Program-made: the position numbers and the translations under genes | From: Hyposmocoma kahamanoa | Lineage: Eukaryota > Arthropoda > Insecta > Lepidoptera > Cosmopterigidae | Assembly: GCF_003589595.1 (NCBI RefSeq) | Contig: NW_020653945.1 | Location: forward strand, 2,226,067-2,290,066 | Reading direction: 5' to 3' | Length of the DNA: 64,000 nucleotides | The notes under the pieces: generated by a model | Database searches by the model: none | Seen by the model: the letters and a program-made list of their open reading frames with translations, nothing else | What the model was told of the DNA's origin: nothing | Shown here: positions 54,399 to 57,300 of the stretch, piece after piece | Numbering within the stretch: the stretch's first letter is position 1 | How the letters are laid out: each line of letters starts with the position of its first letter

Positions 54399-57300
54399 CT
54401 ACAAGCAGAAACGCGCTTGTTAATTGGCATCCTTGTCGCTCCAACATTGAGTACTATCTTGGATTATTTATGGCGGGGTCTCGGAAACAACTGAGCCCTT
54501 TGTTATTTCGATAGTGAAGTTTTATCATTTTTGTGCATCACACGTACATTTCAGATTGCTAATTGTTTAAAAATGGAGGGGATATCTGTACAAATCTGAA
54601 CATAATGACAGTAGAAAATTAAGTAATATCTCTGTAAATGTAGGTATGTAGCAGGGTGTTTACTGTAATATGAAGTGGCTCTGGCCGGAGGGGAGCTAGC
54701 CTCGCGCCTGCCGGCGCCCACCCAGGACAAGTCTGTGTGCGGAAACGATACTACTGTACGCGTGTACAATTTATAGCTAACATTATATGCTGGCGGCAAA
54801 AAAAGCGATTTAAATGTTTAGGGTTGGCACAACAGGTACCAGAAAAATACATTATTTATTTTATTTTTTATACATACAAAGGGATAGTAAAATGTTGTTA
54901 TATACATTCGCATTTATTTACGCTGCGAAGTAATCAAAATCAAGGGAGTTGTTTCTGGTTGAATTGAAGCTGAATCATATCATTTTCTTTTAACTGTATT
55001 TTACACATTGCTTAGTGGCTTATTTAGCAGTCTTATAATTTTAATTTTGCACTTTGTCTGTTTGCCGTATTGAACGGGGACTTACCCGCAGCTTTCTTGG
55101 CGGCGTATAGGTTGGCTTCCTCCTGCGCCTTGCCGATGTTCTTCTTATAGCGAATGCGCTTGTTGCCAAACCAGTTGGACACCTGCAACATGTACTTCTA
55201 TTAGGCAGATCACAAGATTTTATATAAGAAAAAAATATTTAGGCAATTAAACACGATACACATTATGATTTGCGATTATAGTGTCAAATAGTGGCTTTCT
55301 CGGGCCCATTGACTTTTGAGTAGTGGAACGCAATATCGAGCGCTCAGAGGACACATCTAGCGATACCTGGCCGACGGTAATGTCACACTTCATCGCCAGT
55401 TCCTCCTTCACCTCCTCGCTGGGGTAGGGGTTCGCGAGGTGCGAGTAGAAATACTCATTGAGCGTCTCGATGGCGTGTTTCGTGAAATTGCGTCGTTTAC
55501 GCCGTGCGTCGAGGAAACTGCAAAGTAGAGCGGTATATGACGTGGGGTACCTGCGAGACAGTGATGCCGCACTTGCGGGCCAGCTCCTCTTTCGCCTCCT
55601 CGCTGGGGTACGGGTTGGAGAGGTGCGAGTAGAAGTACTCGTTCAGAATCTCGGAGGCCTGCTTGCTGAAGTTTCGGCGTTTTCGGCGCGCGTCCAGAAA
55701 ACTGCAAGCGGTCATTCGGAGTCAATTTTGATTCGAGGCAAAAGTTGAGCTGGCTTACTAATGTTGCGTTCGACGGTACAAATATTCAACTTTTTGATAT
55801 GATTTATTAAGTTAAATATTGCTGTCGGTTACTGAAAGGTAAACATGTTTAAGTAGAATTTTAGCGTGATATAAACGAGAAATAAAATGTATCGTATTAA
55901 TGATTTTTTTTGTGAAATAACTCACTAACAATTTTGTTATGATTAATACAAAGATCGAACACACAGATTTTTTTTCGTCCCAGTGGCACTTGAACCTGCG
56001 ACCATGCTGCACCGTAGCTTTGCCCTTACCGACTGAGCCACAGGTCAAGTAACCGAGATGTCGAAAATTCTTCTATGTTTTTATTATAGATCTTTATACT
56101 GGCTTTCAGCGTTTGTCGTCGCTTGTGACATTTAGTGAGAGATGTTTGAAAAATGTATCGACTGAGAAATAGCGTCACATAAAACTTTCAAATTGACTTT
56201 GACATACCTTATAAACATTATTAAGTCAATAATGTATATTTACCGCGAGCGCAGTATCATGACGGCCTCGCAGGTGGACTGCTTCAGCTGCATCTGGATA
56301 GAGCTGAACTTCTTGTGGATGATCTGCACCATGCGCTCTATTTCCTGTTGCACACAAATAATTCATACATTAATTTGAAAAGTATTCAGTATCAAACAAA
56401 AAGTTCTAACACACCTTTAGGTTATAATTATTAATGCAAAGACCGAACACAGAACAAATTCCTTCGATCGAGCTGGATTGCAACCAATGTCTTGTAGCAA
56501 ATCGTGCCAGACGCTATGCCAACTAAGGGCACGATCCCACTATGTCGTTACGTTTTATTATCGTTGGTCGACAGTCGTGTCTAGCCTGCTCCCATATCAC
56601 GACTATCTGTCGTGGACGATTTTTTTATCGTTGAACGGCTGTCGTGACTAGCTATTCCCACTAGATCGTGACGACAATAGGAGCTGCGGCAATCTGTCGT
56701 CACGTTTTTATCGTGCCGTTTTTTTATCGTCTGACGACTGTCGTTCTAGCTGTTCCCACTGTGACGACTGTTTGTCGTTGTAACGATAAAAAATCGTGAA
56801 CGACAGTTAATCGTGTCGTGCTATATGTGAACAACTTCATTTAAATATACAAGCCACGACACTGTAAATTGCACGACAATCTGTCGTCACGACATAGTGG
56901 GAACGCGACCTAAGCCACGGAACAAAGCTACCGACCTTACGAATTTTTAGAATTTAAGAATCTATTAAGAATCTATTTCTTGACACACTATCTACACGCC
57001 TTTAAGTTTTCAAATAAAGTATGTATGGTTCGTCTTAATCCATTTTATTAAACATTTAAACATACAAGTCATTATAATTTTTAACTTATTGAATATCACT
57101 ATGTTTAACCACCGTGATATTAAATTATTTTTGTAAAATGACTCCACTAGTTTGTTACAATTCGATCCGGCCGGATTCAAACCAACGTCTTTCAGCAAAC
57201 CGTGCCAGACGCTATGCCAATTAAGCCACGGAACGAACTGGCGGACTAACGAATTTTTCTGTGCTTGTTGCAGATCATTGTTTTTGGTTTTTAACGACTT

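What the first reader, a model, noticed from the sequence alone, without database searches (positions are those of the whole stretch)
55367..55701. Tandem-duplicated exd homeobox exon: two alternative homeodomains from one gene
Seen: two 151-nt exons on the - strand (55551-55701 and 55367-55517), each with its own AG acceptor and GT donor and identical phases, both encoding homeodomain arm, helix 1, TALE loop and helix 2. Of 50 codons, 22 are identical, 19 differ silently and 9 change residue (exon residues 12 S/T, 14 Q/H, 16 S/I, 18 I/T, 28 S/A, 36 A/V, 42 R/M, 45 G/D, 49 S/G). The excess of silent over replacement changes shows copy B has been kept as protein. Known: this segment of PBC proteins contributes to DNA binding and forms part of the pocket for the Hox YPWM motif; S/A lies at the TALE loop, G/D at the helix 2-3 turn. 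Inference: the gene makes a canonical Exd and a variant that could bind Hox partners or DNA differently. I do not recall a described case in exd/PBX.
Basis: partly seen in the sequence, partly recalled or inferred. Interest (0 to 1): 0.93.

Follow-up and report, generated by a model that had tools for sequence, protein, structure and literature searches.

The report
Two swappable homeodomain exons in extradenticle
In this moth or butterfly genome, the single gene for the Hox partner protein Extradenticle carries two side-by-side versions of the exon encoding most of its homeodomain, laid out so that a working message can use only one of them at a time.

Summary
A complete exd gene, the only one found in the genome, lies on the minus strand (54217-62319). 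Its homeobox exon exists twice: A (55551-55701, canonical) and B (55367-55517), each 151 nt with intact splice sites and the same phases. Of 50 codons 22 are identical, 19 silent, 9 replaced; dN 0.125, dS about 1.8. Neutral decay is rejected.

The layout forces a choice. The A-B intron is 33 nt, below published spliceable distances, and using both exons or neither breaks the frame. A and B are very probably mutually exclusive coding exons.

B-type exons also occur in Manduca and Galleria protein models. Two unnamed contigs carry A and B in tandem 27 and about 34 nt apart. Operophtera shows no B.

B keeps the Hox-pocket residues that lie in the exon, the arm and the shared helix 3. It changes TALE-loop Ser23b (a change common in other PBX proteins) and, here only among B copies read, Ser43, a Hox-contact residue. 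Altered partner choice is plausible but untested.

Separate tandem copies of this exon appear in gene models of molluscs, an annelid and a lobster. No paper describing this was found in the held library. No RNA evidence was available.

The parts
62061..62319 (-). exd exon 1 (start codon, N-terminus and first part of PBC domain)
   Evidence: tblastn with recalled Drosophila Exd; spliced frame
61819..61971 (-). exd exon 2 (PBC domain)
   Evidence: donor position inferred from frame
59964..60142 (-). exd exon 3 (PBC domain; acceptor at 60142 or 60127, both in frame)
56244..56344 (-). exd exon 4 (end of PBC domain); ends in phase 2 (CG|)
55551..55701 (-). Homeobox exon A (5A), canonical: homeodomain arm, helix 1, TALE loop, helix 2, 151 nt
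   Evidence: identical from residue 3 on to solved Extradenticle chain 5zjq_B, and from residue 4 on to 4cyc_B; exact 50-residue peptide in 27 of 343 fetched records
55518..55550 (-). 33-nt A-B intron with GT...AG, too short to be spliced by published limits
   Evidence: distance limits from PMC6692369 passage; 27 and about 34 nt in P0129 and P0190
55367..55517 (-). Homeobox exon B (5B), variant copy, 9 of 50 residues changed, 151 nt
   Evidence: B-type relatives P0016, P0027, P0129, P0190
55086..55182 (-). exd exon 6, shared recognition helix 3 and C-terminal extension
54217..54395 (-). exd exon 7, C-terminus and stop codon

Best explanation
Exons A and B are a tandem-duplicated, mutually exclusive pair. 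The spliceosome joins exon 4 to A or to B, and the chosen exon to exon 6, giving two full-length 372-residue Exd proteins that share the PBC domain and recognition helix but differ in the arm-to-helix-2 part of the homeodomain. Exclusivity is built in at two levels. The 33-nt A-B intron places the 5' splice site of A against the 3' splice site of B, so both cannot be used together. If both or neither were included, the frame shifts and a stop follows. Shown: layout, frames, constraint, B copies in other genomes. Inferred: the actual splicing choice, its tissue control, and function. Most likely function: B-Exd is a DNA-binding cofactor of the same fold whose loop and helix surface tune Hox or other partner cooperativity, not a dead or purely inhibitory form.
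For: Both spliced forms are open over 372 codons; A+B stops after six codons of B and the double skip shifts frame. A-B intron 33 nt, against a reported minimum of about 50 nt from 5' splice site to branch site, 35 nt abolishing assembly on adenovirus E1A pre-mRNA, and alpha-tropomyosin as a case where this distance affects mutually exclusive splicing (PMC6692369 passage). The tight A-B layout recurs: P0129 holds A in another frame (50 of 50 canonical residues permitted) 27 nt before B; P0190 holds A, then a second copy about 34 nt later. B has dN 0.125 against dS about 1.8 and no stop or indel. Manduca P0016 is a full-length model with B joined to helix 3; Galleria P0027 is a named isoform X10 with B. 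Both forms score as PBC plus homeodomain in Pfam (Homeodomain and Homeobox_KN: B 57.0 and 54.7 bits; A 57.4 and 61.0). The Manduca B-form model matches PBX1 and Exd homeodomains (1b72, 4uus, 1puf; probability 1.00, target TM 0.87-0.91).
Against: No RNA reads could be examined; models in databases can be wrong. Operophtera P0013 shows no B signal after A. The Galleria model with B ends 14 residues later, apparently in the following intron, so B may there be a terminal exon. No YTNAY branch-point motif lies in the A-B intron or exon A, so how B's 3' splice site is recognised is unclear. The splicing distance limits come from other organisms. dS is near saturation, so the ratio is rough. The window's B has five changes not in Manduca B (14H, 18T, 42M, 45D, 49G), so constraint may be loosening in this lineage. 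The signature Ala28 is common outside B (104 of 343 records). In P0190 five of 35 positions fit neither A nor B of this genome.
Confidence: 0.8

Rival explanations
1. B is a relic: an old duplicate exon that is no longer spliced into message.
For: No transcript evidence was available. Operophtera shows no B. A further contig with a copy after A, P0124, carries a strongly diverged copy. This genome's B has five changes beyond Manduca's.
Against: Nine replacements against 14 or more in every one of 20,000 neutral runs, with no stop; intact AG and GT sites; B-type copies in Manduca, Galleria, P0129 and P0190 share with this one Ala at exon residue 28 (5 of 5) and a hydrophobic residue at 16 (5 of 5).
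Confidence: 0.08
2. B serves mainly as an alternative terminal exon: reading on into the next intron gives an Exd with PBC domain but without recognition helix 3, a non-DNA-binding or dominant-negative form.
For: Galleria isoform X10 (P0027) has B followed by 14 residues, apparently intron-coded, and its end. PBC-interacting Homothorax has homeodomain-less isoforms (title in the reference list of PMC7392893).
Against: Manduca P0016 joins B to helix 3; B here keeps its donor GT and its frame into exon 6.
Confidence: 0.07
3. The second exon is a switch for dose: mis-splicing to both or neither makes a message with an early stop, so the pair tunes how much Exd is made, and B-Exd is functionally the same as A-Exd.
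For: Both wrong outcomes shift the frame. The Hox-pocket residues within the exon are kept in B (residues; sequences). Ala at 23b is tolerated in many PBX proteins.
Against: A poison exon need not keep protein sequence; B is constrained at protein level and shares residues between species.
Confidence: 0.05

Closest known systems
PBC-class TALE homeodomain proteins (Drosophila Extradenticle, vertebrate PBX1)
   Same: PBC domain, three-residue TALE loop, same recognition helix; exon A identical from residue 3 on to a solved Extradenticle homeodomain (that the chain is from Drosophila is recalled)
   Different: A second, alternative version of the arm-to-helix-2 part is encoded beside the first. 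A published PBX1 splice switch appeared in a listing (PTBP1 and Pbx1, PMC4755740; listing and abstract start seen, not read); recalled: it concerns an exon after the homeodomain.
Mutually exclusive exon pairs kept apart by short spacing (alpha-tropomyosin type)
   Same: Duplicated homologous exons, length not a multiple of three, 5' splice site of one too near the 3' splice site of the next (PMC6692369 passage)
   Different: Here the pair lies in a homeodomain transcription factor and the whole intron is 27-34 nt; for alpha-tropomyosin the passage names the 5' splice site to branch site distance.
COQ2 a/e exons in annelids and other animals
   Different: An enzyme; the passage ties one exon to rhodoquinone synthesis
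Tandem pbx/exd homeobox exons in gastropods, bivalves, Owenia and Panulirus (gene models found here)
   Same: The same region of the same gene is duplicated; in gastropods the variant is used singly in models of Aplysia, Bradybaena, Babylonia (isoform X3) and Littorina
   Different: In 16 of 16 such records the second copy lacks the FLDA that begins lepidopteran B, and in the gastropod and Owenia double models the variant copy comes first, so the duplications are probably separate events

Membership tests
PBC-class TALE homeodomain protein (exd/PBX) | PBC domain upstream of the homeodomain | tested here: met
   Pfam PBC 283.6 bits, residues 40-234
PBC-class TALE homeodomain protein (exd/PBX) | Homeodomain with three-residue TALE loop, in form B as well | tested here: met
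   Form B: Homeodomain 57.0 bits, Homeobox_KN 54.7 bits; aligns without gaps to Exd 4cyc_B and PBX1 1b72_B; fold of the Manduca B-form
PBC-class TALE homeodomain protein (exd/PBX) | Residues of the Hox Trp pocket (F20, L23a, P24, Y25 in this exon; R53 in exon 6) | tested here: met
   All kept in B; residue list from PMC8198631 passage, mapped by hand on the sequence; Ser23b beside them is Ala in B
PBC-class TALE homeodomain protein (exd/PBX) | Cooperative DNA binding with Hox proteins | not testable with these tools
   Needs purified A-Exd and B-Exd with Hox and Hth
Mutually exclusive exon pair | Two adjacent homologous exons with the same phases and own splice sites | tested here: met
Mutually exclusive exon pair | Joint inclusion or joint skipping disrupts the protein | tested here: met
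   A+B stops after FPRRTA; skip shifts frame
Mutually exclusive exon pair | A physical bar to joint splicing | tested here: inconclusive
   33-nt intron against limits quoted in PMC6692369; same tight spacing in P0129 and P0190. The bar is inferred from length and was not measured.
Mutually exclusive exon pair | Transcripts with exactly one of the two exons | tested here: inconclusive
   Protein models only: Manduca P0016 with B alone, Galleria isoform X10 with B alone; no reads available

The most novel reading that the evidence does not exclude
The homeobox exon of the PBC gene has been duplicated in tandem and kept as a swappable pair several times: once in Lepidoptera (unit including FLDA, variant second, about 30-nt spacing), and separately in gastropods and other lophotrochozoans and in decapod crustaceans (unit without FLDA; in gastropods the variant comes first). 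If so, invertebrates repeatedly gained a second Hox-cofactor homeodomain by splicing, giving a hidden, cell-type-controlled layer of Hox specificity beneath a protein thought to be nearly invariant.
Probability: 0.45. Interest if true: 0.9.

Novelty: new variant of a known kind. Interest (0 to 1): 0.76.

Why it matters
Exd/PBX is the shared partner that gives Hox proteins much of their specificity, and its homeodomain is almost frozen: exon A's homeodomain is the same in this lepidopteran as in the solved Extradenticle chains. A second homeodomain version chosen by splicing means that studies of exd in Lepidoptera that treat it as one protein may average two. It gives a natural test, with nine defined substitutions on one scaffold, of which PBC residues outside the Trp pocket matter to Hox partner choice.

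Tried and rejected
Assembly artefact: rejected (115 of 151 nt identical, no nearby N run, one locus in the genome).

Retained but unconstrained duplicate: rejected by the neutral simulation.

A third exon copy in the window or genome: none found.

Reaching B isoforms by full-length search: of little use, because the protein collection is clustered at 90% and A and B forms of this gene differ at 9 of 372 residues, so most B forms would hide inside A clusters (inference). Two named lepidopteran B records surfaced among the listed best 120 of 2,336.

Reading tails after the KCGITV(S/G/A)Q motif for a hidden second copy: of 46 tails examined only P0190 and P0124 exceeded their shuffles. Many tails are short and from unnamed sources, so this is no measure of frequency; Operophtera gave no signal.

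A branch-point motif in the A-B intron: no YTNAY found. RNA pairing that might choose the exon: one weak 14-nt inverted pair, not pursued.

Literature: eight library searches bore on this question; two more were on splicing distance and on the Hox pocket. In what they listed (one search showed 20 of 22 papers; one search showed 12 of 14) I saw no paper on duplicated or mutually exclusive exd/PBX homeobox exons, judging by titles, abstract starts and the passages read. Thrips PMC7570057 and Alvinella PMC12403961 passages concern other genes. Manila clam PMC9803972 passages report pbx4 differentially spliced between sexes, exon not stated. PMC3303723 and PMC9218548 gave zero occurrences of exd or extradenticle in the main text.

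Full report
1. What is there. A complete exd gene lies on the minus strand. tblastn with a recalled Drosophila Exd probe located the parts, and splicing at AG/GT sites gave exons 62061-62319, 61819-61971, 59964-60142, 56244-56344, A 55551-55701 or B 55367-55517, 55086-55182 and 54217-54395. The result is an open frame of 372 residues for either form. The exon 2 donor and exon 3 acceptor are inferred from frame, and a second exon 3 acceptor is possible. Among the 343 fetched records the best matches of form A are the Manduca protein (348 of 370 residues) and the Galleria protein (271 of 282). That is why I call the source lepidopteran; its species is not known. The own genome is 728 Mb. Each of the two exons finds only itself and its partner there, and the form B protein finds eight matches at this locus and only two weak homeodomain matches elsewhere, at 39% identity. 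So one exd gene was found.

2. The two copies. A and B are each 151 nt and 115 nt are identical. Of 50 codons 22 are identical, 19 silent and 9 replaced: S12T, Q14H, S16I, I18T, S28A, A36V, R42M, G45D, S49G in exon numbering. NG86 with Jukes-Cantor gives dN 0.125 and dS 1.84, the latter near saturation. In 20,000 neutral simulations with 36 changes of the same transition and transversion mix, the fewest replacements was 14, the mean 23, and 75% had a stop. Similarity ends 3 nt past the donor and 6 nt before the acceptor. The duplication is therefore old, and B has been kept as protein.

3. Why the exons should exclude each other. The intron between them is 33 nt. A passage of PMC6692369 states that about 50 nt between 5' splice site and branch site is needed, that 35 nt abolished complex assembly on adenovirus E1A pre-mRNA, and that this distance affects the exclusive exons of alpha-tropomyosin. 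Joining A to B would in any case give a stop after six codons of B, and skipping both shifts the frame. The bar is inferred from these numbers, which come from other organisms. No YTNAY branch motif was found in the short intron or exon A, which leaves open how the B acceptor is recognised.

4. B in other genomes. A search with exon B listed the best 120 of 2,336 proteins. Manduca sexta P0016 is a full-length model with a B-type exon joined to helix 3. Galleria P0027, named isoform X10, has a B-type exon and ends 14 residues later, apparently in the following intron. A second search with shorter lengths (best 120 of 992) gave P0129 and P0190. P0129 permits all 50 canonical A residues in another frame, 27 nt upstream of a B exon. 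P0190 has A in frame and then, about 34 nt on (worked out by hand from the frame), a copy readable in the second frame. Of its 35 readable positions 30 permit a residue of this genome's A or B, against at most 17 in 2,000 shuffles; 28 permit A and 29 permit B; Ala is forced at 28 and I, L, M or V at 36, while positions 14, 16, 17, 18 and 21 fit neither. Across the five B copies (this genome, Manduca, Galleria, P0129, P0190) residue 28 is Ala in 5 of 5, residue 16 is hydrophobic in 5 of 5, residue 12 is Thr in 4 of 5, and residue 36 is Val in 3, Ala in P0129 and I/L/M/V in P0190. If the Manduca and Galleria copies are orthologous, B predates their split (about 100 million years, recalled).

5. 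Results against. Operophtera P0013 shows no B signal after A; its two identical canonical pieces, which include the same intron start, look like a draft-assembly repeat. P0124, unnamed, has a copy after A in which the basic arm is replaced by QKEEEK. That could be another variant or decay. B of this genome carries five changes not in Manduca. The Ala28 signature is common: HLANPYP occurs in 104 of the 343 fetched records, although two of the three searches were made with B and so favour it. No reads were available, so splicing is not shown.

6. Effect on the protein. PBX1 residues that hold the Hox Trp are Phe252, Leu256, Pro259, Tyr260 and Arg288 (PMC8198631 passage), that is homeodomain 20, 23a, 24, 25 and 53 by my own numbering. 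The first four lie in this exon and are all kept in B; the fifth is in shared exon 6. Beside them Ser257 (23b), listed in that paper's simulation table as bonding the Trp, is Ala in all five B copies. Homeodomain Ser43 of PBX1 bonds HOXA9 K58, and the like contact is reported for AbdB/Exd on its highest-affinity site (PMC6450960 passage). It is Gly in this genome's B but Ser in Manduca, Galleria and P0129. Other changes lie on helices 1 and 2 and their turn, by the Manduca B-form model (helices 238-250, 259-269, 273-289). That model, overall pLDDT 63 but block means of 75-89 over the homeodomain, matches PBX1 and Exd homeodomains. It is a model of a homologue and cannot show a functional difference. 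I favour tuned partner choice over loss of function, at about 0.4 for altered Hox preference, which is inference.

7. Wider pattern. Of 343 fetched records 21 hold more than one in-frame copy, all (20 by the pattern, plus P0014 by eye). I set aside five: P0001 and P0004 (near-identical fish repeats), P0013, P0014 (two whole PBC genes in one protein) and P0124. In the remaining 16 the second copy lacks FLDA, unlike lepidopteran B. They are Panulirus P0002 (three copies), Pomacea, two Elysia, Mya, two Biomphalaria, Owenia, Mytilus and seven unnamed. A third search (best 120 of 2,290) found the gastropod variant used alone and joined to helix 3 in Aplysia, Bradybaena, Babylonia isoform X3, Littorina and one unnamed record. 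Different exon borders and, in gastropods and Owenia, opposite order suggest separate duplications. Border shift from one old event is not excluded, and some double-copy models may be annotation errors.

8. Known or new. Eight library searches on the question showed no description of duplicated exd/PBX homeobox exons (titles, abstract starts and some passages seen). The library lacks most subscription journals. Isoforms with B evidently exist in databases (Galleria X10). The kind, mutually exclusive exons, is well known; its use to swap part of a Hox cofactor's homeodomain appears undescribed in what I could search.

Noticed in passing
window 57162-57235 (-), in the intron between exd exons 3 and 4: tRNA-like element (Rfam 35.6 bits). 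The surrounding 201 nt has 5,277 first-look candidates in the genome, of which 40 were scored, giving 46 matches, so it is probably a tRNA-derived SINE and not a tRNA gene.
   Followed up: partly
window about 55980-56050 (-), intron just upstream of exon A: A further stretch resembling tRNA promoter boxes (GGTTCAA), by eye; the genome search for it did not complete.
   Followed up: no
window 16521-16596 and 29478-29553 (+): Two tRNA-Thr (ggt) calls by ARAGORN about 13 kb apart; possibly SINE heads as well.
   Followed up: no
P0124 (unnamed contig record): Exon A followed after roughly 23 nt by a diverged homeobox exon copy whose basic arm is replaced by acidic residues (QKEEEK) while the end CGITVSQ is kept.
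   Followed up: partly
P0015 (Engraulis encrasicolus pbx1-like): A fish PBX1-like protein whose homeodomain exon has the same T12, I16, A28 and V36 as lepidopteran B, probably by convergence.
   Followed up: no
[quoted passage not shown] the exon is not given. It may be the molluscan homeobox exon pair.
   Followed up: no
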